Below, piece by piece: positions 534 to 20,078 of a stretch of DNA of 64,000 nt. Under the pieces are notes generated by a model. It searched no databases, was not told the origin of the DNA, and worked only from the letters and a program-made list of their open reading frames with translations. Origin of the DNA: an archaeon (GTDB lineage Archaea; Nanobdellota; Nanobdellia; SCGC-AAA011-G17; GW2011-AR17). Numbering within the stretch: position 1 is the stretch's first letter; each line of letters opens with the position of its first letter. The translations under genes and the position numbers were made by a program. Where the stretch lies: the NCBI GenBank assembly GCA_018656555.1, contig JABHZQ010000004.1:62001-126000 (forward strand). The letters run 5' to 3'.

Positions 534-1823
534 CTATGGTGTAAATCTTGTTGGATTTCTTGGGAAAGGAATTGCATCCTTAATAGTATCTAACCCACAA
601 ATCCAAGAGATCACTCTCTCAACACCCATACCAAATCCTCCATGAGGAACAGAACCATACCTTCTAGTGTCAAAGTAATACTCATAATTATTCAAATCTT
701 CTCCTTCTTTTGTCAATCTCTCTTTCAATAATTCAACATCTGTCTCTCTCTGTGAAGCCCCAAACAATTCACCATATCCATCAGGGCCAATAACATCAAA
801 CCCAAGAACAACTTTATTATCTTCAGGATCTTCTTTCATGTAGAAAGCCTTAACTTCCTTAGGATATCTTGTAACAATTATTGGAGTATCATACAACTCC
901 CCTAACTTGTCTTCTTCAATAGTTCTAAGATCTTTACCCCATTTAACTTTCAGCTTGCACTTTTTATCTAAAATCTTCAATGCTTCAGTGTAAGTAATTC
1001 TAGGGAATTTTTTCTTTGCAGTAGCTTCTAGTTTCTTAGTATCTCTTTTTAGGATCTCTAATTCTTCTTTACAATCTTTTAGAACTAGTTTTACAATATT
1101 TCTTAGTAAGCCTTCTGCTTCATCCTGTAAATCATCAAAAGTATTCCATAAAATTTCCATCTCAGCATGCCAGTACTCTGTTAAGTGTCTTGAAGTAACA
1201 CTCTTTTCAGCTCTGAAAGATGGTGCAATACAATATATCTTTTCTAGAGAAAAAATAGCAGCTTCAGCATATAACTGCCAAGTCTGAGCTAAATACAACT
1301 CTTTACCAAAATAAGGAACAGTAAACATAGTACTTCCTCCCTCTCCTTGAGTTGCTTGGAAAATTGGACTTTGAAACTCATAGTAATCATTACTTCTAAA
1401 ATAATCATGAATAGCTCCAAATACCTTACTTCGTATTTTCATAATAGCATTCATCTTTCTTGATCTTAACCATAAGTGTCTGTTATCAGCTAAGAACTCT
1501 GTAGAAAGGTCTTTAGCTATTGGAAAAACTTCAGAAAAATGAACAACATTTAATTTTTCTACTTTAATCTCATAACCAGTTGGTGCTCTATCATCTTTTG
1601 AAACCTTTCCATCAATCTCAACAGCACTCTCAGTAAGTATTTTTTCAGCATCTTTCCATATATTTTCACTAACCTTTTCTTTTTCAACAACACATTGAAT
1701 TATATTTTTAGAATCTCTCATAATTAAGAAAATTAAATTCTTTCCTTTCCGAATCCTATAAACCCAGCCTTTAATATGTGTCTTTCCTTTACCTTTTTTT
1801 ATAGTTTCTTGGATGCCTACCAT
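534..1823 (-). CDS. asnS: Asparaginyl-tRNA synthetase
   Basis: A class IIb synthetase of 429 aa that charges tRNA-Asn with asparagine in the cytoplasm. An N-terminal OB-fold anticodon-binding domain covers about residues 15-110. Class II motif 2 contains FRAEKSVTSRHLTEYWHAEME, whose TSRHLTE plus W-x-x-E pattern is typical of AsnRS rather than AspRS. Motif 3 ends the protein (HGGFGMGVERVISWICGL, then FPRNPTRFTP). Full length for the family. Its presence means Asn-tRNA need not be made by transamidation, which bears on the AspRS at 3378-4637. An MFS transporter gene follows directly downstream. Confidence 0.95.
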   Translation of the reverse strand: MVGIQETIKKGKGKTHIKGWVYRIRKGKNLIFLIMRDSKNIIQCVVEKEKVSENIWKDAEKILTESAVEIDGKVSKDDRAPTGYEIKVEKLNVVHFSEVFPIAKDLSTEFLADNRHLWLRSRKMNAIMKIRSKVFGAIHDYFRSNDYYEFQSPIFQATQGEGGSTMFTVPYFGKELYLAQTWQLYAEAAIFSLEKIYCIAPSFRAEKSVTSRHLTEYWHAEMEILWNTFDDLQDEAEGLLRNIVKLVLKDCKEELEILKRDTKKLEATAKKKFPRITYTEALKILDKKCKLKVKWGKDLRTIEEDKLGELYDTPIIVTRYPKEVKAFYMKEDPEDNKVVLGFDVIGPDGYGELFGASQRETDVELLKERLTKEGEDLNNYEYYFDTRRYGSVPHGGFGMGVERVISWICGLDTIKDAIPFPRNPTRFTP

Positions 1824-3377: not shown

Positions 3378-4637
3378 TTACGGCCTTAACCTATCTGGAT
3401 CTCTAGGCAAGAAAACAACCTCTCTTACATTATCTAACCCTAATAATCTCTGTGCAATTCTATCCAAACCTAATCCACAACCACCATGAGGTGGAGCTCC
3501 ACACTTAAACAATAGAACATAATCTTCCATAGCATCTAAATCAACACCTTTCTCTTTAGCTTGAGCTTTCAATACTTCATACCTATGCTCTCTTAAAGAA
3601 CCAGTTGCAATTTCAACTCCTTTAAACAATAGATCGAAACTCTTTGTACCATTACCATTCTTAACATGATAGAAAGGTCTTTTATCCCAAGGGTAGTTTA
3701 TTACAAAAACAAAATCACATCCATGCTTTTCTTTTATCAAATCTCCAACCAATTGTTCTGATTCAGAATCTAGATCTTCATTTTCACCAAGCTCTTTTCC
3801 CTTTTCCTTTAACATTTTCTTTAATTCAACCATTTCAACCCTTGGTATCTTACCGGGTAAAGCTACCTCAATATCTTCTAAATTACTCAAGACCTCTTTC
3901 AAATAAGCCTCAGTAACATCCATAATCTCTGATAGATTTTTTACAAATCCCATCTCAAAGTCAACACCTGTAAATTCAGTTTGATGTCTTGAAGTGTTTG
4001 ATTTTTCAGCTCTAAACACAGTACCAATCTCAAAAACCTTTTCAAAACCAGAACATACTAACATTTGTTTGTAGATCTGTGGACTTTGGGATAAGTAGGC
4101 TTTAGTTCCAAAATAATCAATAGTAAACATATCTGCACCCGATTCAACTCCAGCTGAAGTCATCTTAGGTGTATTAACTGCAATAAACCCTTGTTTACTA
4201 AAAAAATCAACAGTTGTTTTGTAAATAGAATCTCTAACTTGGAATATTTTTTGTATTTCTGGTTTTCTCAAATCTAAAAACCTGTAATCTAACCTTGTTG
4301 ACAAATCAGTATTAATATCTCCCTTTTCCACAACCTGAATAGGTAGAACTTGTAAAACTTCACCTAAAACCTCAACACTATCAACTTGAACTTCATATCC
4401 TAATTTAGCAACTTTATTTTCAACAACCTTTCCTTTAATCTCAACAGCTGTTTCTTGCTTTAGCTTAGGAACCAAGTCAAATGTTTCTTGATTGTCAGAT
4501 AGAACAACACACTGAATAATCCCAGTTCTATCTCTTAGAAGTAAAAACTTAATCTTAGCTAGATCTCTAATCTCATGTAACCAACCATTCATGGTTACTT
4601 CCTTCCCAACTTTAAGATCTTTGATATAAGTCCTCAT
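3378..4637 (-). CDS. aspS: Aspartyl-tRNA synthetase, archaeal type
   Basis: A 419-aa class IIb synthetase. The N-terminal OB domain holds the GWLHEIRDL segment, motif 2 is FRAEKSNTSRHQTEFTGVDFEM, and motif 3 is GCGLGLDRIAQRLLGL followed by FLPRDPDRLRP. Two positions are known to separate discriminating from non-discriminating archaeal AspRS. Here they are His (as in non-discriminating enzymes) at the position equivalent to W26 of the Thermococcus kodakarensis enzyme, and Lys (as in discriminating enzymes) at the K85 equivalent in KVAKLGYEV. Because an AsnRS gene lies 1.6 kb away, the enzyme is expected to be Asp-specific, but the sequence is ambiguous. Confidence 0.95.
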   Translation of the reverse strand: MRTYIKDLKVGKEVTMNGWLHEIRDLAKIKFLLLRDRTGIIQCVVLSDNQETFDLVPKLKQETAVEIKGKVVENKVAKLGYEVQVDSVEVLGEVLQVLPIQVVEKGDINTDLSTRLDYRFLDLRKPEIQKIFQVRDSIYKTTVDFFSKQGFIAVNTPKMTSAGVESGADMFTIDYFGTKAYLSQSPQIYKQMLVCSGFEKVFEIGTVFRAEKSNTSRHQTEFTGVDFEMGFVKNLSEIMDVTEAYLKEVLSNLEDIEVALPGKIPRVEMVELKKMLKEKGKELGENEDLDSESEQLVGDLIKEKHGCDFVFVINYPWDKRPFYHVKNGNGTKSFDLLFKGVEIATGSLREHRYEVLKAQAKEKGVDLDAMEDYVLLFKCGAPPHGGCGLGLDRIAQRLLGLDNVREVVFLPRDPDRLRP

Positions 4638-10174: not shown

Positions 10175-10657
10175 ATGAGTTATGCTAAACTGTTTAAAGA
10201 AATAAAAAATAAACACTTTCCAGAGTTAAAAGAATATAAAATTAGTTTCAAACAAAAGAGACAAAAGGTTTTCATGAACTCCAATATATTCTCAATAAAA
10301 GATTTTCTTAAACAAAAAGAACTCTCTCCAATTACATATAATAAAGAGATACTAAAATCAACTCCAAAAAAGGCAGTAGAAGCTGCAATAGCTCATGAAC
10401 TCTGTCATAAATTACAAGGATTAGATTCTAATCCCCTAAAACATATCTATATCTGGGTATCTTGCAAATTAACTCTCCAATCTAAAGTAAAATTAGAAAG
10501 AGAAGCTAATATCATGACAGTAAGAAGGGGATTTGCAGAGGGTATGGTACAACTAAGAAAATCCTGTGAAAAAAGATTAAAAAAAGACTGGGACAAAAAA
10601 TGGTCTAAGTTACATTTATTAGAAAAAGAGATTAAAAAGCATTCTAGTAAAAAGTAA
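10175..10657 (+). CDS. Small zinc metallopeptidase-like protein (HELCH)
   Basis: A 160-aa basic protein with the zincin motif AAIAHELCHKLQGLD (H-E-x-x-H at about residues 75-79). A downstream Glu (KLEREANIMTVRRGF) is placed as the third ligand would be in SprT/M48-type families. No signal peptide is visible; a hydrophobic IYIWVSCKLTL stretch follows the motif. Intracellular minimal zinc peptidase is the best reading. It overlaps the 3' end of glyA by 14 nt. Confidence 0.65.
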   Translation: MSYAKLFKEIKNKHFPELKEYKISFKQKRQKVFMNSNIFSIKDFLKQKELSPITYNKEILKSTPKKAVEAAIAHELCHKLQGLDSNPLKHIYIWVSCKLTLQSKVKLEREANIMTVRRGFAEGMVQLRKSCEKRLKKDWDKKWSKLHLLEKEIKKHSSKK

Positions 10658-11924
10658 AGTGGGTACACAATTCTTTAACTTTATTATTAATAAACTTCAA
10701 CTTATCTTCATTAGTATGATCTTTAACAACTTCTGAAATCCAATGTCCAACCAAATCCATCTCTTGTTCTTTCATACCTCTAGTTGTTAATACTGGAGTA
10801 CCCAATCTCAAGCCAGAAGGTTTGAAAGGACTTCCTGGTTCAAATGGAATGGTATTTGCATTCATAACAATTCCAGCCTTCTCCAAAGCAACAGCAATAG
10901 GCTTTCCTAAACTAGCCTCTCCTTTGGTCTTAACCAAATCAATTAAAATTAAATGATTATCAGTTCCACCAGAAACAAGAGTCATACCATATGTTTGTAA
11001 ACTCTCTGCAAGAGCTTTTGCATTCTTAACAATCTGTGAAGCATAATTCTTAAAATCATCACCCATTGCCTCTTGAAAACAAACAGCCTTAGCAGCAATA
11101 GTATGTTCATGAGGTCCACCTTGCAAACCAGGAAAAACAGCTCTATCTATTTTACCACCAAGATCTTTAGTTTTCTTAGCCTTCTTCTCATCTAAACCTT
11201 CAACACTTGCAAACCTATCTTCTTTATTACAAAGGATAACAGCACTTCTAGGCCCCCTAAGAGTTTTATGGGTAGTACTTGTAGTAATATCAAAGTAAGG
11301 GGCAGGATTCTCATGTTCACCTCCAACACAAAGCCCTGCAATGTGAGAAACATCAGCTAAAGCATAAGCTCCTATTTCTTGACAGATAGAAAAAAACTCT
11401 TTAAAATCAATCTTACGAGGATAAGCAGTATAACCAGAAATAATCATTTTAGGTTTTTCTTCATAAGCCAGCTTTCTAATCTTGTCCATATCTAAAAGTC
11501 CATTCTCTTGAACACCATAAGAAACAAAGTTATACATCTTACCTGAAAAGTTTACTTTAGAACCATGAGTCAAATGTCCACCATGAGTTAAATCCATTCC
11601 CATAATCTTATCTCCTGGATTCAAAACTGCAAAGTAAGCAGCCATATTAGCTGGACTACCTGAATTAGCTTGAACATTAGCATGATCAGCACTAAAAAGT
11701 TTCTTAGCTCTTTCAATTGCCAACAGCTCAACCTCGTCGATAAATCGATTACCTTGATAATATCTCTTACCAGAATAACCCTCAGAATACTTATTGTTCA
11801 AAACACTGCCACATGCCTTCAACACATCTTCACTACAATAGTTTTCAGAAGGAATCATATTAAGTTCATATCTCTGCCTATCTAATTCTCTATCAATAAT
11901 CTCCTTCACAACTATATCTTTCAT
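10644..11924 (-). CDS. glyA: Serine hydroxymethyltransferase
   Basis: A 426-aa PLP enzyme converting serine and tetrahydrofolate to glycine and 5,10-methylene-tetrahydrofolate. Signatures: ELNMIPSENYCSEDVL at the N-terminus, NVQANSGSPANMAAYFA, DVSHIAGL, and the PLP-lysine motif TTSTTHKTLRGPR. It is the last gene of thyA-folA-glyA and overlaps folA by 4 nt (ATGA), implying translational coupling. It would supply methylene-folate to ThyA. The gene set looks bacterial in type. Confidence 0.96.
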   Translation of the reverse strand: MKDIVVKEIIDRELDRQRYELNMIPSENYCSEDVLKACGSVLNNKYSEGYSGKRYYQGNRFIDEVELLAIERAKKLFSADHANVQANSGSPANMAAYFAVLNPGDKIMGMDLTHGGHLTHGSKVNFSGKMYNFVSYGVQENGLLDMDKIRKLAYEEKPKMIISGYTAYPRKIDFKEFFSICQEIGAYALADVSHIAGLCVGGEHENPAPYFDITTSTTHKTLRGPRSAVILCNKEDRFASVEGLDEKKAKKTKDLGGKIDRAVFPGLQGGPHEHTIAAKAVCFQEAMGDDFKNYASQIVKNAKALAESLQTYGMTLVSGGTDNHLILIDLVKTKGEASLGKPIAVALEKAGIVMNANTIPFEPGSPFKPSGLRLGTPVLTTRGMKEQEMDLVGHWISEVVKDHTNEDKLKFINNKVKELCTHFTFY

Positions 11925-12391
11925 TTTCTTTTGTAGATCATAAACTCAAAATCGCCAAAATCTTGAGTAGTTTCAACCTCAAATTCATCAAGGTTAAACT
12001 TAGGAAAATAAACATCACCTTCATAATCTTTCTTAATCCAGGAAATATACTTTTTATCAGCTATAGGCAAAAACAACTTATAGATTGTAGCACCTCCTAT
12101 AACAAATATGTCCTTTTCAAAACTTCTTCCATTCTCAACAGCCTCTTCAACACTTCTACAAACAGTAACTCTTTCATCTTGTAATGATCGAGAAATAACT
12201 ATATTATTTCTATTTGGTAAAGGATGTCCAATCATAGAGAGAATAGAATCATATGTTTTTCTACCCATAATAACTGTATTTCCAGAAGTAACTCTCTTAA
12301 AATTCTTTAAATCTTCAGGGATATGCCAAGGTAAATTATTTCCCTTACCAATAACCCTATTTTTGGTCATACCAGCAATTATAGCTATCAT
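11921..12391 (-). CDS. folA: Dihydrofolate reductase
   Basis: A 156-aa DHFR that reduces the dihydrofolate produced by ThyA. Conserved features are the N-terminal IAIIAGMTKNRVIGKGNNLPWHIPEDL (Met20-loop region and catalytic acid), the NADPH-binding TVIMGRKTYDSI, and IFVIGGATIYKLFLP. Full length. The gene overlaps thyA upstream and glyA downstream by 4 nt each. Confidence 0.95.
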   Translation of the reverse strand: MIAIIAGMTKNRVIGKGNNLPWHIPEDLKNFKRVTSGNTVIMGRKTYDSILSMIGHPLPNRNNIVISRSLQDERVTVCRSVEEAVENGRSFEKDIFVIGGATIYKLFLPIADKKYISWIKKDYEGDVYFPKFNLDEFEVETTQDFGDFEFMIYKRK

Positions 12392-13260
12392 ACTGCAATC
12401 TCAAAAGGTATTCTTGGATAAGATTCATAACCAAGAACTTTTGAATCCTCACATTTCCAATTAAATATTGAAGTAAAGTTTTCTGTTTCTACTTTAGGTA
12501 GAGCAAACTTCAATGGACTTCTACCTAGTTGTTCCTTTGCACCATCAATATGGTTCTCATAAATATGTACATCACCTAAAAATCCAATCAACTTACCTTC
12601 CTTAAAGCCAGATTCCTTTACAAGTAAGTGCAATAACAAAGCATAGCTAGCTATATTGAAAGGTAAACCTAACATAGTATCAACACTTCTTTGATTCCAA
12701 AGTAAATTTAACTTATCTTTAATCACAGTAACCTGAAAACCATAATGACAAGGAGGCAAAGCCATCTTATTCATTGCAGTAGGATTCCAAGCACTAACAA
12801 TCATCCTTCTATCAGTTGGATTAGTTTTTAACATATCAACAACCCTTTTCAATTGATCAACTCCTTGCCCACTATAATCAGTAGTAAAGTCAATATAATT
12901 AGCACCAAAATGTCTCCATTGAAAACCATAAATAGCTCCTAAATCCCTCTCATCCATCATTCTCTTCTTACTAACTTCATCATGACCATAAGGAGCCTTT
13001 TGAGGATTAGCCCATTCATCCCAAATATGATTTTTCCTTTCCTGTAACCAAGTTTTATCAGTAATAGCCTTAATAAAAAACTCTAATTCAGAAGCAACCA
13101 ACTTAAATGGTGTTTTTTTTGTTGTCAACAAAGGAAAGCCCTCAGACATATCATGTTCAAACATAGATCCTGCAACAGCAAGCGTGCCAACTCCAGTTCT
13201 ATTATCTTTTAAAACTCCATTATCAAGAATATTTTTTACAATCTCTAAGTAAGCTTTCAT
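12388..13260 (-). CDS. thyA: Thymidylate synthase, ThyA type
   Basis: A 290-aa classical ThyA making dTMP from dUMP with methylene-tetrahydrofolate. The start used is MKAYLE at 13260, since upstream in-frame codons are untypical and a TATA-like ATATTTAATAAGG lies before it. Motifs: DNRTGVGT, LLTTKKTPFK, the active-site Cys in MALPPCHYGFQVTV, RSVDTMLGLPFNIASYALLLHLL, and GDVHIYENH. Many archaea use ThyX or lack folate-dependent dTMP synthesis, so the operon is notable. First gene of thyA-folA-glyA. Confidence 0.96.
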   Translation of the reverse strand: MKAYLEIVKNILDNGVLKDNRTGVGTLAVAGSMFEHDMSEGFPLLTTKKTPFKLVASELEFFIKAITDKTWLQERKNHIWDEWANPQKAPYGHDEVSKKRMMDERDLGAIYGFQWRHFGANYIDFTTDYSGQGVDQLKRVVDMLKTNPTDRRMIVSAWNPTAMNKMALPPCHYGFQVTVIKDKLNLLWNQRSVDTMLGLPFNIASYALLLHLLVKESGFKEGKLIGFLGDVHIYENHIDGAKEQLGRSPLKFALPKVETENFTSIFNWKCEDSKVLGYESYPRIPFEIAV

Positions 13261-13306
13261 TTTAATTATCGATGAGAAACACCTTATTAAATATTTATAT
13301 TTTGAA

Positions 13307-13579
13307 CTATCTCTTTTTCTTTCTCTTCTTGGGTTTTTGCCCAAATTTCTTCAAAACATCCTCTGCTTCTTCTTCTGATTTAATAAAGATTACAATAAGA
13401 AGTACTACAATACAAGTAGAAAGTATAGCTGCTATTAATTTATACCACAAAGCATCTCCAGGAGGTAAAATAGTTTCAACAAACGCAATAATGAAATCTC
13501 TCCATATCAAACCTGCTGTAAATGTTAGTGCAGCAATAATGGAAGTCTTTATCACCTGTTTTGCAGATACTTTAACCAT
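13307..13579 (-). CDS. DUF5654-like small membrane protein
   Basis: A 90-aa protein with two hydrophobic helices (about residues 10-35 and 45-68) and a very basic tail (KKFGQKPKKRKKKR). The opening KQVIKTSIIAALTFTAGLIWRDFI is typical of the small archaeal DUF5654 family. Function unknown. It precedes thyA on the same strand with a 46-nt gap. Confidence 0.65.
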   Translation of the reverse strand: MVKVSAKQVIKTSIIAALTFTAGLIWRDFIIAFVETILPPGDALWYKLIAAILSTCIVVLLIVIFIKSEEEAEDVLKKFGQKPKKRKKKR

Positions 13580-14783: not shown

Positions 14784-15101
14784 TTAAGGATTTTGTAACT
14801 TAAGAGCATCATACTCTGCCATTTTTCTATCAAACCTTTCATCTCTTCTGTCTTGAGTTATTACATGGTCATTCCACCAAAGCCTACTATTCTCCAAACA
14901 TATTTCAACAGAAGCATTATATCGAGCTAAAATTCCAGTACAAACTTCTAGTGTAGCCCAACCACCAACTAACAAATAATCCCCTGCCTTTGCCGCATCT
15001 ATACCTTGAGTTATAGCAGTTCCAGTAACTAAACCAAAAATCAAAGGCATAGTACAAGCTCGGACAGTACTACTTAAACTTCGTTCTCTTATCTCTCTCA
15101 T
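14784..15101 (-). CDS. Hypothetical protein with possible membrane helices, 105 aa
   Basis: No family recognised. Residues 12-30 (TVRACTMPLIFGLVTGTAI) and 38-58 are moderately hydrophobic and may form a membrane hairpin; the C-terminal third is charged (DRRDERFDRKMAEYDAL). Its ATG overlaps the gatE stop by 4 nt, so it is translationally coupled to gatE. Nothing else suggests a role in transamidation. Confidence 0.6.
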   Translation of the reverse strand: MREIRERSLSSTVRACTMPLIFGLVTGTAITQGIDAAKAGDYLLVGGWATLEVCTGILARYNASVEICLENSRLWWNDHVITQDRRDERFDRKMAEYDALKLQNP

Positions 15102-16498
15102 TTTAGTTTTTTCAAAATCTCCATAACCTTTTTACCTTCAACCTTACCCTTAAACATTTTCATAGCATCTCCCATCAATCCACCAATTGGAGCATCAGGA
15201 TTCTTCTTAACTAATTCATTTAATCCCTTCTCTATCTCTTCATCACTTAAGCCCTTATAAGAATCTAAATTAATATCCTCACCTTTTAACTTCTTAACCA
15301 AAATATCAAGAACTGCATCTTTTGCAACACCCTTGATAACATAATCAAATACTTCTAAATAATCATCTTCAGTTAATTGGGAAGCATCTAAATTAAACCT
15401 TTTCTTAATCTCTTTAGGATAATTTGTCAAAACATCAGCAATAAAATTATTATCTAACTTTAGTTTAGCATATTTCTCAAAGTTAATATCTTTTTTTACC
15501 AACTCTCTTGCAACATCTTCTCTTAACTTGTATTCTTTTTCAAATCTTAAAACTATATCATCAATTAATTCAGGTATTCTAACTTCTAATAACATCTCTT
15601 CTGTAATCTGTATTGGTTCAATGTCTGTTTCAGGATACATTCTAGCAGCTCCAGGCATAGGCCTCAGAAACTCAGTAGTACCATCTGGATTAAACTTCCT
15701 AACATGTGCCTCTCCTTTCCCTTTTTGTTGCCTTTTAACTTCTATTTCAATAACTTTAGGCATCATCTTCAATTCTTGAAAACCTTTGATCTCCACTCTT
15801 GGATGCCCCTTAATAGAAACATTAACATCTTGCCTAATAGAACCAATCCCTCTCTTTACCTTTCCAGTACTTCTTAGAATCATTCCAATCTTGCTAGAAA
15901 CTTCTTTTGCATGTTCAGCATCTTTAATATCTGGTCCAGTTTGTACCTCCAATAAAGGAACTCCTAATCGATCTAATCTCCAGTTAACCATTTCCTCATC
16001 CTCACTAACTTTTTGTGCAGCCTCTTCCTCTAAAAATAAGTTTTCAACACTAACTCTTCCTTTTGAAGTATCAATATACCCATCCATTCCAACTAAAGCA
16101 GTTCTTTGAAACCCAGAAACATTTGAACCATCAATAACAGTCTTTCTCATAAATTCAATTTCATCAACAACTTTCATCTTAAACAATAATGCAACCTCTA
16201 AAGCAGTTTCCAAAGCTTTCTTACTAACTTCATGGGGTGGTTCCTCATCATATTCAACCAAACAACTAGAAGAAGAACAACCTTCATACTTGTTTACCCT
16301 ATCTTTTTTCATCTCAGTTAATGCAGCTTTGTCAATCTTACCTAGTTCACCAGCAATAGCTCTTAACTTTCTTTCAAAAACAACATCTGGTTTATTAGAA
16401 TCATGAACCACATTAGGACAACTACAGAATAATTTATGGCCTTCTAGCTGTTGATGAGCTTCGATACCAGCCTTAAATCCCAACTCCTTGTAATCCAT
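15098..16498 (-). CDS. gatE: Glu-tRNA(Gln) amidotransferase subunit E lacking the GAD insertion
   Basis: The kinase/transamidase subunit of archaeal GatDE, 466 aa. The start DYKELGFKAGIEAHQQLEGHKLFCSCP, the zinc ligands C25, C27, C74 and C79, RKTVIDGSNVSGFQRTALV, RLGVPLLEVQT and IRQDVNVSIKGHPRVEIKG are all typical. In usual GatE (about 620 aa) an AspRS-like GAD domain of over 100 residues follows the EVKRQ segment. Here that segment (about residue 257) runs almost directly into HVRKFNPDGTTEFLRPMPGAARMYPETD, so the insertion is missing. The C-terminal helical and YqeY-like tail domain is retained. GatD lies at 18685-19950. Confidence 0.92.
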   Translation of the reverse strand: MDYKELGFKAGIEAHQQLEGHKLFCSCPNVVHDSNKPDVVFERKLRAIAGELGKIDKAALTEMKKDRVNKYEGCSSSSCLVEYDEEPPHEVSKKALETALEVALLFKMKVVDEIEFMRKTVIDGSNVSGFQRTALVGMDGYIDTSKGRVSVENLFLEEEAAQKVSEDEEMVNWRLDRLGVPLLEVQTGPDIKDAEHAKEVSSKIGMILRSTGKVKRGIGSIRQDVNVSIKGHPRVEIKGFQELKMMPKVIEIEVKRQQKGKGEAHVRKFNPDGTTEFLRPMPGAARMYPETDIEPIQITEEMLLEVRIPELIDDIVLRFEKEYKLREDVARELVKKDINFEKYAKLKLDNNFIADVLTNYPKEIKKRFNLDASQLTEDDYLEVFDYVIKGVAKDAVLDILVKKLKGEDINLDSYKGLSDEEIEKGLNELVKKNPDAPIGGLMGDAMKMFKGKVEGKKVMEILKKLK

Positions 16499-17006: not shown

Positions 17007-17894
17007 ATGCCTTGTAAAAAATGTGGAAAAAAGATATTATGCTCAGATTTCTGTAGGTCTCACTTTGTTGATTATGTTGAAAATAAAGTAAGAAAGACAA
17101 TTAGAAAGTACAAATTATTTACAAAAAAAGATAAAATAGCAGTTGCAGTATCTGGAGGAAAGGACTCTACTGTTTTACTCTTCATACTCCACAAATTAGG
17201 TTATGATGTTACTGGGATCACAGTTGATGCAAAAATAGGTAATTATACCAAAGTTAACCTAGAAAACCTTCAATCAGTCTGTAAGAAATATGAAGTTCCA
17301 TTAAAAGAAATATCCTTTAGAGAAGAATTTGGTTACTCTTTATGTTATATTCGAGATGTACTAAAAAGTAAAGGTTATACCTATTCATCCTGTACAATCT
17401 GTGGAGTATTAAGAAGATATTTATTAAATAAATATGCAAAGGGTTTTGATATTATAGCCACAGGGCATAACTTAGATGATGAAGCTCAAGCTTTCTTAAT
17501 GAATATTTTTAGAAATGATCTAACTGTTGCAAGGAGACAAGGTCCTATATCTGGAGTAGGAAAAACAAAGAAGTTCATAAGAAGAGTAAAACCTTTATTT
17601 AATGTAAGAGAAAAAGAAATAGAAACTTACTCCAAATTACACAAATTTCCAGTAAACTATAATGAATGCCCTTGTTCAGTTGATGCTTATAGAAAAAACT
17701 TCAAAAAATTCCTAAATGATTTTGAAGAGAAGCATCCAGATGTTAAATATAATATTAACAATTTCTTCATGAATTCAATATACACAGAAAATAAGGAAAG
17801 TAAAGTAAACATAGGTACTTGTAAAATATGTGGCGAGCCTTCTGCAAATGACAAATGTAAGGTTTGTATTATACTTGAGAATCTAAAGAGTTAG
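17007..17894 (+). CDS. tRNA 2-thiolation enzyme, TtuA/NcsA family
   Basis: A 295-aa PP-loop enzyme that thiolates tRNA uridine or thymine. An N-terminal zinc finger (CKKCGKKILCSDFC) is followed by the PP-loop AVSGGKDSTVLLF and the two-Cys SSCTICGVLRR, with a later Cys in ECPCS giving the three Fe-S cluster ligands. ATGHNLDDEAQAFLMNIFRND and a C-terminal zinc finger (CKICG, CKVC) complete the TtuA/NcsA layout. Whether it acts at U34 or T54 cannot be decided here. The ATG follows a TTTATAAAC box by about 25 nt. Confidence 0.9.
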   Translation: MPCKKCGKKILCSDFCRSHFVDYVENKVRKTIRKYKLFTKKDKIAVAVSGGKDSTVLLFILHKLGYDVTGITVDAKIGNYTKVNLENLQSVCKKYEVPLKEISFREEFGYSLCYIRDVLKSKGYTYSSCTICGVLRRYLLNKYAKGFDIIATGHNLDDEAQAFLMNIFRNDLTVARRQGPISGVGKTKKFIRRVKPLFNVREKEIETYSKLHKFPVNYNECPCSVDAYRKNFKKFLNDFEEKHPDVKYNINNFFMNSIYTENKESKVNIGTCKICGEPSANDKCKVCIILENLKS

Positions 17895-18684: not shown

Positions 18685-19950
18685 TTAATCTAAATGAGAA
18701 GTACTCAATCTTTTATTAAATTCTCCTCGTAAATCTTCATGTAATAATTCTTTAACTTCTTTATCATCAAAGTTACTCAATAACCAAGCTAATTTAATAT
18801 AAGTCAATTCAGGATGCATATCTGAGTAATTACCAAGAACTCCTATATCCATTAATTCCCGGCCCACATTATAAACATTCATATTAACTCTACCAAAAAT
18901 ACATTGGGTAGACATAACAACTGGCATTTTTTTACACAATTTCTTTAATTTACTGTAAATTTTTTCATTTTCTTTGTGAGTGAGTATACTAATATGTCCT
19001 AATCCAGTTCCTTCAATAACCAATCCATCAAATTTATCATAAATCTCTAACTCTTCAGCAAAAATATTTGGTCTGACTTTTAGTATACCTACTTTTACAT
19101 CAGGATTAAACTCTCTTAAAACTATATCATTAGATTTATTCTCAAATCCCCTAAATATATGGACTTTTTTAGTTCTATAGTCTACTTCTCCAACAATATC
19201 CTCATTAATAACTTTAAATGCATCTCTTCTAGAGGAATGTAATTTCCTACACTTCAAGCCAGGAAGAATAACACAAAAATCATCATCCATTGCTCTATGC
19301 ATACAGACTCCAACTTCATTAAACTTACTATTAACCATAAATTCCACAGCACAAATCAAGTTCATTGCTGCATCAGAACTACCTCTATCTGAACTTCTTT
19401 GAGCACCAACCAATAATACTGGCTTACTCAATCCTTGTAAAATAAAGCTTAAAGCAGCAGAAGTATAATGTAAAGTATCAGTACCATGGGTAACAATAAC
19501 TCCATCAACCTCTTCTAATTCTTCTTTAATTACCTTAGCTATTTTATTATAATCCTCAAATCTTAGATTTTCAGACATAAAATTGCCAATAAGCCTAGAT
19601 TTAATATTAGCAACCTTTTCAATTTCAGGAAACATTTCAATTAATTCTTCGGGTGTAAACTTAGCAACAACCCCTCCAGTCTCATAATCCACTTTTGAAG
19701 CTACTGTTCCACCAGTATGTAAGATAGTAATAGTCTTTTTTCCCTTTTGGTGCTTATGTTCACCCTTTTTTACCTTTTTTTCTTCATATTCTTTCAGAAC
19801 TTTACTTTTCTTAATGTTCTTTTTCAAAATCCCTACATTATAACCAGAAGTTAATTTAATAACTAGTTTTTTTTCACTAGAATTGGGCATAAACACACCT
19901 TTTAGTTGTTTATCCTTTGTTTCTACCTCGATTAGGTCACCAGGTTTCAT
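18685..19950 (-). CDS. gatD: Glu-tRNA(Gln) amidotransferase subunit D
   Basis: The asparaginase-like subunit that releases ammonia from Gln/Asn for GatE. The N-terminal small beta domain KPGDLIEVETKDKQLKGVFMP is GatD-specific. Catalytic threonines lie in ILHTGGTVASKVDYETGGV and VDGVIVTHGTDTLHYTSAAL; VLLVGAQRSSDRGSSDAAMNL and GLVIEGTGLGHI follow. I place the start at 19950 (421 aa), because a TATATATAAA box lies about 27 nt upstream and family members begin M-x-P-G-D; a longer form starting at 19968 is possible. Its partner gatE is 2.2 kb away rather than adjacent. Confidence 0.93.
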   Translation of the reverse strand: MKPGDLIEVETKDKQLKGVFMPNSSEKKLVIKLTSGYNVGILKKNIKKSKVLKEYEEKKVKKGEHKHQKGKKTITILHTGGTVASKVDYETGGVVAKFTPEELIEMFPEIEKVANIKSRLIGNFMSENLRFEDYNKIAKVIKEELEEVDGVIVTHGTDTLHYTSAALSFILQGLSKPVLLVGAQRSSDRGSSDAAMNLICAVEFMVNSKFNEVGVCMHRAMDDDFCVILPGLKCRKLHSSRRDAFKVINEDIVGEVDYRTKKVHIFRGFENKSNDIVLREFNPDVKVGILKVRPNIFAEELEIYDKFDGLVIEGTGLGHISILTHKENEKIYSKLKKLCKKMPVVMSTQCIFGRVNMNVYNVGRELMDIGVLGNYSDMHPELTYIKLAWLLSNFDDKEVKELLHEDLRGEFNKRLSTSHLD

Positions 19951-20078
19951 CAAAGAAAAAAGTAACATCCTCTCTTTATATATATTACGAAAAAATTAGG
20001 GCTTCATTTAAAAGAATATGTACTACAGAATATAAATCTTTAAATATTAGAATCTGTCATATAAAAATTATATTAAAT

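What the first reader, a model, noticed from the sequence alone, without database searches (positions are those of the whole stretch)
15098..16498. GatE without the AspRS-like GAD domain
GatE is defined among GatB relatives by an inserted GAD domain of over 100 residues. Here the sequence passes from the EVKRQ segment to HVRKFNPDGTTEF with only a few residues between, while flanking motifs are intact. The GAD domain helps select tRNA-Gln, so its loss implies another means of tRNA choice or a GatB-like ancestor state. GatD is complete.
Basis: partly seen in the sequence, partly recalled or inferred. Interest (0 to 1): 0.6.

Follow-up and report, generated by a model that had tools for sequence, protein, structure and literature searches.

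The report
GatE that lacks its GAD domain
A tiny symbiont-type archaeon makes its glutamine-carrying tRNA with an ordinary enzyme that has cleanly lost one of its textbook domains; about half of the surveyed relatives with the gene have lost it too, seemingly several times over, while the tRNA stayed the same, so the domain is probably not what selects the tRNA.

Summary
Window 15098-16498(-) encodes a full, uninterrupted 466-aa GatE (NF003107 525 bits, cutoff 456) with no GAD domain. The catalytic cradle and tail are present, and an 11-residue linker replaces about 134 residues. No GAD domain occurs anywhere in the 1.08-Mb assembly. GatD is complete.

It is not a peculiarity of this genome. 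Of 224 phylum genomes with GatE, I classed 113 as GAD-less and 111 as GAD+ (37 against 3 in the window's order). Lengths are bimodal (464-492 against 588-633 aa), with no intermediates. On a tree built without the GAD columns the state changes 9 times (bootstrap 7-9), and one GAD-less clade is rejected (AU p = 0.008). The preferred reading is a dispensable module, lost repeatedly and perhaps regained.

The inferred 'other means of tRNA choice' is not needed. In 26 of 26 strictly parsed genomes (17 GAD-less, 9 GAD+), tRNA-Gln keeps A1:U72, A73 and a short D-loop, the determinants GatDE reads. GAD-less linkers match GatB's (median 16 residues). The three residues that best track GAD state (240, 245, 249) sit beside the junction.

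I found no description of this in the open-access library; subscription papers were not searchable.

The parts
15098..16498 (-). gatE, 466 aa, GAD-less Glu-tRNA(Gln) amidotransferase subunit E
   Evidence: NF003107 525 bits (cutoff 456), TIGR00134 475 bits (cutoff 320); PDB 2d6f_C E=1e-98
15590..16474 (-). GatB/GatE cradle (catalytic) domain, residues 9-303, continuous across the deletion point
   Evidence: Pfam PF02934 residues 9-303, profile 2-276 of 277
15701..15727 (-). junction that replaces the GAD domain (residues 258-266, QKGKGEAHV); GAD insertion point after residue 263
   Evidence: PDB alignment gap; 134 GAD-only columns after residue 263; R256-to-R267 spacing 11 here, GAD-less median 16, GatB median 16, GAD+ median 149
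15752..15781 (-). residues 240-249 on the helix before the junction; F240, M245 and V249 are at the three positions that differ most between GAD-less and GAD+ GatEs
   Evidence: Jensen-Shannon ranking; phylogenetic pairs agree in direction for 240 and 249 but are too few for significance
15107..15481 (-). YqeY-like tail domain, residues 340-464
   Evidence: Pfam PF02637, 23.3 bits, below the 27-bit cutoff; aligns with the tail of 2d6f_C and 1zq1_C
18685..19968 (-). gatD, 427 aa, partner amidase subunit
   Evidence: NF003217 459 bits (cutoff 310), TIGR02153 428 bits (cutoff 324); 1zq1_A and 2d6f_A
534..1823 (-). asparaginyl-tRNA synthetase: Asn-tRNA(Asn) is made directly
   Evidence: NF003037 479 bits (cutoff 414)
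3378..4637 (-). archaeal-type aspartyl-tRNA synthetase, no GAD domain
   Evidence: NF003483 483 bits (cutoff 353)

Best explanation
This is a functional GatE that works with GatD as the Glu-tRNA(Gln) amidotransferase and from whose gene the GAD (AspRS-like) insertion was precisely lost, restoring a GatB-length linker. SHOWN: clean absence of GAD; intact cradle, tail and GatD; no GAD and no GatB in the assembly; an unchanged tRNA-Gln identity set; absence widespread in the phylum and not monophyletic. INFERRED: the enzyme still converts Glu-tRNA(Gln) to Gln-tRNA(Gln), reading A1:U72 with the cradle and the D-loop with the tail; the GAD module is an accessory that helps affinity, product handling or GluRS docking rather than tRNA selection; and repeated loss, with possible re-acquisition by recombination or gene transfer within this DPANN class, explains the patchwork.
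For: GatE equivalog scores pass the cutoffs despite the missing domain. Reading frame intact. Sixty-nine residues are over 93% conserved in both GAD-less and GAD+ sets. Bimodal lengths without intermediates. 113 GAD-less and 111 GAD+ among 231 phylum genomes with a match. At least 9 state changes on the careful tree (bootstrap 7-9, starred branches force at least 3) and AU p = 0.008 against one GAD-less clade. All strictly parsed tRNA-Gln have A1:U72 and A73: 17 GAD-less and 9 GAD+ genomes. GAD-less linkers have GatB spacing (median 16, range 11-17; GatB 16, 12-17). GatDE reads the D-loop and A1:U72 (PMC9499178). The positions that best track GAD state are 240, 245 and 249, beside the junction. 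It is the only GatB_N protein in the assembly, so it must serve tRNA-Gln unless a gene lies in an assembly gap.
Against: No biochemistry exists for any GAD-less GatE that I could find. The direction (loss or gain) is not fixed: the GatB outgroup branch is very long (1.92 changes per column) and the base of GatE is unresolved. The tRNA search was seeded with this genome's tRNA-Gln and 15 of 64 genomes gave no hit, so divergent tRNA-Gln could be under-sampled. The assignment of A1:U72 to the cradle and the D-loop to the tail is from memory of the structure papers, which were not readable here. The AlphaFold model is poor (mean pLDDT 53, three-row alignment).
Confidence: 0.75

Rival explanations
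1. The GAD-less form is the ancestral, GatB-like state, and GAD was inserted later (once, then spread, or several times) in other archaea and DPANN lineages.
For: GatB lacks GAD and has the same linker spacing. Some GAD-less DPANN rows branch near the base of the FastTree. In the GAD-only tree the five-member own-order group and G044 sit with different partners than in the body tree, which fits movement of the domain.
Against: GAD+ is found in M. thermautotrophicus, P. abyssi and a Nanohaloarchaeon as well as in DPANN, at the identical insertion site. Repeated insertion of the same domain at one site is less likely than repeated loss. GAD-less is not a basal grade with good support.
Confidence: 0.15
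2. Loss of GAD marks a change of specificity: the enzyme also, or instead, amidates another tRNA such as Asp-tRNA(Asn).
For: No GatB in the assembly, so this is the cell's only tRNA-dependent amidotransferase of this family.
Against: AsnRS and an archaeal AspRS are both encoded in the window, so Asp-tRNA(Asn) need not be amidated. tRNA-Gln keeps its GatDE identity set while tRNA-Glu and tRNA-Asn are G1:C72. 61 GAD-less phylum genomes have a second, GatB-like match and 52 do not, so GAD state is not tied to GatB.
Confidence: 0.06
3. The GAD function is supplied in trans by a separate protein or by another part of GatE or GatD.
For: Many relatives carry a second GAD domain in a 580-630-aa ORF with the length of a bacterial-type AspRS.
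Against: No GAD match anywhere in the window's assembly, even at E=1. In sampled GAD-less relatives every GAD hit lies in such an ORF or in an ORF cut short; no small stand-alone GAD gene was seen. GatE and GatD gained no new domain.
Confidence: 0.02
4. Assembly or sequencing artefact (in-frame deletion in the MAG).
For: The window is from a 26-contig assembly.
Against: More than 100 genomes of independent species show the same architecture.
Confidence: 0.01

Closest known systems
Archaeal GatE of GatDE (PDB 2d6f chain C, M. thermautotrophicus; 1zq1 chain C, P. abyssi; NCBIfam PRK04028 / TIGR00134)
   Same: Orthologous by curated-model score; cradle and tail domains aligned end to end; partner GatD present; tRNA-Gln has the archaeal A1:U72, A73 identity
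   Different: No GAD/AspRS-like insertion (about 139 chain residues absent); short linker; different side chains at 240, 245 and 249 beside the junction
GatB of GatCAB (PF02934 + PF02637)
   Same: Same overall domain architecture without GAD; same linker length (median 16)
   Different: Scores 134 bits against a GatB cutoff of 338, but 525 against GatE; keeps GatE-specific sequence; partner is GatD, and GatB is absent from the assembly
Split GatE of Nanoarchaeum equitans and Nst1 (NEQ 245-396; PMC3655853)
   Same: Unusual Glu-tRNA(Gln) amidotransferase gene structure in Nanoarchaeota; the paper says the GatDE route was experimentally confirmed in N. equitans
   Different: There the gene is split in two (that the split gene is gatE is my reading); whether that protein has GAD was not checked here

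Membership tests
GatE (archaeal Glu-tRNA(Gln) amidotransferase subunit E) | Score above curated GatE equivalog cutoffs | tested here: met
   NF003107 525 > 456; TIGR00134 475 > 320
GatE (archaeal Glu-tRNA(Gln) amidotransferase subunit E) | GatB/GatE cradle catalytic domain | tested here: met
   PF02934 184 bits, nearly full profile
GatE (archaeal Glu-tRNA(Gln) amidotransferase subunit E) | GAD (AspRS-like) insertion domain | tested here: not met
   Absent from the protein and from the assembly. It is also absent from about half of phylum GatEs on my classification, so it is a common but not a defining feature
GatE (archaeal Glu-tRNA(Gln) amidotransferase subunit E) | GatD partner encoded in the genome | tested here: met
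   Window 18685-19968
GatE (archaeal Glu-tRNA(Gln) amidotransferase subunit E) | Substrate tRNA-Gln with A1:U72 and short D-loop | tested here: met
   Own tRNA-Gln (L047): A1:U72, A73; tRNA-Glu is G1:C72 with a D-loop two bases longer; relatives
GatE (archaeal Glu-tRNA(Gln) amidotransferase subunit E) | Amidation of Glu-tRNA(Gln) with GatD | not testable with these tools
   Needs an enzyme assay
GatB (GatCAB) | Score above GatB equivalog cutoffs | tested here: not met
   134 bits against 338 (NF004012); 123 against 315 (TIGR00133)
GatB (GatCAB) | Groups with GatB in a tree | tested here: not met
   GatE and GatB rows separate at 100/100 support

The most novel reading that the evidence does not exclude
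The GAD domain of GatE is a mobile accessory module that has been lost several times and re-acquired at least once within one DPANN class, each change accompanied by re-tuning of a small hinge patch (positions 240, 245, 249). Natural GAD+/GAD-less pairs, such as G195 against G279/G166 in one family, would show that GAD is dispensable for tRNA-Gln selection and reveal its real role, for example docking of GluRS in the Gln-transamidosome.
Probability: 0.4. Interest if true: 0.5.

Novelty: new variant of a known kind. Interest (0 to 1): 0.4.

Why it matters
Textbook descriptions tell GatE from GatB by the GAD insertion and suspect it of a role in tRNA choice. A large set of natural GatEs without it, beside close relatives that keep it, with the tRNA unchanged, is a ready-made natural experiment on what the domain does. 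It also warns against using GAD presence to annotate GatE in DPANN genomes, and the GatB-length linkers make the GatB/GatE relationship clearer.

Tried and rejected
Displaced GAD elsewhere in the genome: none. Artefact: rejected by the survey. Link to GatB absence: none visible (61 with, 52 without a GatB-like match among GAD-less; 41 and 70 among GAD+). Link to bacterial-type AspRS: hinted inside the window's order (second GAD domain in 5 of 6 GAD+ genomes and in a minority of GAD-less ones), but all six sampled GAD-less genomes of other orders also carry a GAD domain in an AspRS-sized ORF, so it is not general. A GluRS gene was sought as docking partner: not found in this assembly, present in 37 of 42 sampled genomes. 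A first IQ-TREE run timed out and was replaced by FastTree and treekit. Sheppard 2008 is not held. The first tRNA parser missed intron-less genes and was corrected.

Full report
CHECK. The ORF at 15098-16498(-) is an uninterrupted 466-aa GatE. It passes both curated GatE models and fails every GatB model. Against M. thermautotrophicus GatE (2d6f_C), residues 1-258 match chain residues 1-257 and residues 264-464 match 397-613; the roughly 139 residues between, the GAD or AspRS-like domain, are absent, and P. abyssi 1zq1_C gives the same picture. Pfam sees the cradle domain and a weak tail match but no GAD, and a GAD search of the assembly (1,082,529 bases, 97.7% complete) finds none although the control works in 14 of 14 genomes. 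The assembly holds no other GatB_N protein. GatD at 18685-19968 is complete.

SURVEY. In 99 relatives of the same family and order, most GatEs align in one stretch with an open frame of about 460-520 codons; six genomes (G002, G003, G021, G028, G044, G092) have 589-622-codon frames aligned in two stretches with a gap where GAD sits. Pfam confirms GAD in examples of the long form, weakly in the Nanohaloarchaeon, and the genome search places GAD in the long GatEs. Across 236 phylum genomes, 231 had a match; I classed 113 as GAD-less, 111 as GAD+ and 7 as having only a GatB-like match. The class was assigned from match span and E-value, so a few cases near the boundary could be misassigned. Of 40 GatE-bearing genomes of the window's order in that sample, 37 are GAD-less.

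LENGTH AND JUNCTION. Among 106 GatEs aligned, GAD-less ones are 464-492 aa (three shorter rows are cut by contig ends) and GAD+ ones 588-633 aa, nothing between. The 134 GAD-only columns fall at one point, after window residue 263. The spacing from R256 to R267 is 11 in the window, median 16 (11-17) in GAD-less, median 16 (12-17) in GatB and median 149 in GAD+. The domain was therefore removed, or never inserted, as a unit.

TREE. With GAD columns left out, a 74-row ML tree needs at least 9 changes of GAD state (bootstrap 7-9; strongly supported branches alone force 3; shuffled mean about 22), and GatE separates from GatB at 100/100. Holding all GAD-less GatEs in one clade costs 152 log-likelihood units, AU p = 0.008. 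Mixed states occur inside families: f56 has G195 GAD+ beside G279/G166 GAD-less; f12 and the window's own f1 are mixed too. Five GAD+ GatEs of the window's order (G002, G003, G021, G028, G092) form one 100/99 clade whose nearest relatives are GAD-less, which suggests either several losses around it or one regain by transfer or recombination. GAD-only and body-only trees disagree on the placement of G044 and this clade, but support is modest. The GatB outgroup branch is long and the base of GatE unresolved, so loss is preferred over gain on parsimony of mechanism and on its presence in Methanothermobacter, Pyrococcus and a Nanohaloarchaeon, not by rooting.

tRNA SIDE. The window's genome has one detected tRNA-Gln (UUG) with A1:U72 and A73, a tRNA-Glu with G1:C72 and a D-loop two bases longer, and a tRNA-Asn with G1:C72. 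[quoted passage not shown] In relatives, every tRNA-Gln that passed strict parsing has A1:U72 and A73: 17 GAD-less and 9 GAD+ genomes, the window's own included, intron-containing genes too (further cases read by eye). The search was seeded with the window's tRNA-Gln, and 15 of 64 genomes gave no hit, so this is strong but not exhaustive. Loss of GAD thus leaves the known identity set unchanged.

CO-VARIATION. Among aligned positions, 240 (F in 67 of 77 GAD-less; A, W or V in 26 of 29 GAD+), 249 and 245 differ most between the two sets; all three lie on or beside the helix that leads into the junction (helix 243-258 in the low-confidence model). Independent pairs on supported branches agree in direction for 240 and 249 but number only three, so this is a lead. 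G044, a GAD+ GatE that branches among GAD-less ones, has the GAD-less-type F240 and S245.

CONTEXT. AsnRS and archaeal-type AspRS lie in the window, so Asn-tRNA is made directly and GatDE is needed for Gln only. GAD state is not tied to a GatB-like second match nor, outside the window's order, to the GAD-bearing AspRS-sized ORF. No free-standing GAD gene was seen.

MECHANISM. Most likely GatD releases ammonia and GatE phosphorylates and amidates Glu-tRNA(Gln), as in known GatDE (established knowledge). The tRNA is chosen by cradle and tail; GAD is accessory. The role of GAD in affinity, product release or GluRS docking is inference.

NOVELTY. I found no mention of GAD-less GatE in the open-access library. 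Subscription papers, including the GatDE structure papers and Sheppard and Soll 2008, could not be read, so 'undescribed' is limited to what was searchable.

Noticed in passing
G000 (whole assembly): No glutamyl-tRNA synthetase found (PF00749 and TIGR00463), though 37 of 42 sampled genomes match the archaeal GluRS model; probably an assembly gap.
   Followed up: partly
L150, L166, L178, L190 (G195, G020, G197, G279): tRNA-Gln genes appear to carry an intron near positions 9-10, between acceptor and D-arm, an unusual place; A1:U72 and A73 are kept.
   Followed up: partly
L077 (G066:C15:610-2022) and G066:C22:5093-6496: One genome has two different GAD-less GatE genes; the second groups near the GAD+ clade of this order, so a second GatE lineage circulates (or the bin is mixed).
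   Followed up: partly
G042, G058, G098, G134, G181, G196, G230, G266, G287: Genomes with only a weak GatB-like match and no GatE found; may be incomplete or may make Gln-tRNA by another route.
   Followed up: no
G002, G006, G007, G010, G012, G021, G028, G044 and others: GAD-bearing ORFs of AspRS size (580-630 aa, presumably bacterial-type AspRS) are patchy in the order, while the window's genome has an archaeal-type AspRS.
   Followed up: partly
window 17007-17894 (+): A TtuA/NcsA-like tRNA thiolation enzyme lies between gatE and gatD (below the equivalog cutoffs; TIGR00269 passes).
   Followed up: no
window 10644-13344 (-): SHMT followed by ORFs that look like dihydrofolate reductase and ThyA-type thymidylate synthase (by eye): a compact folate/dTMP cluster.
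   Followed up: no
G254:C2:91506-92927: GAD-less GatE reading frame with one internal TAA.
   Followed up: no
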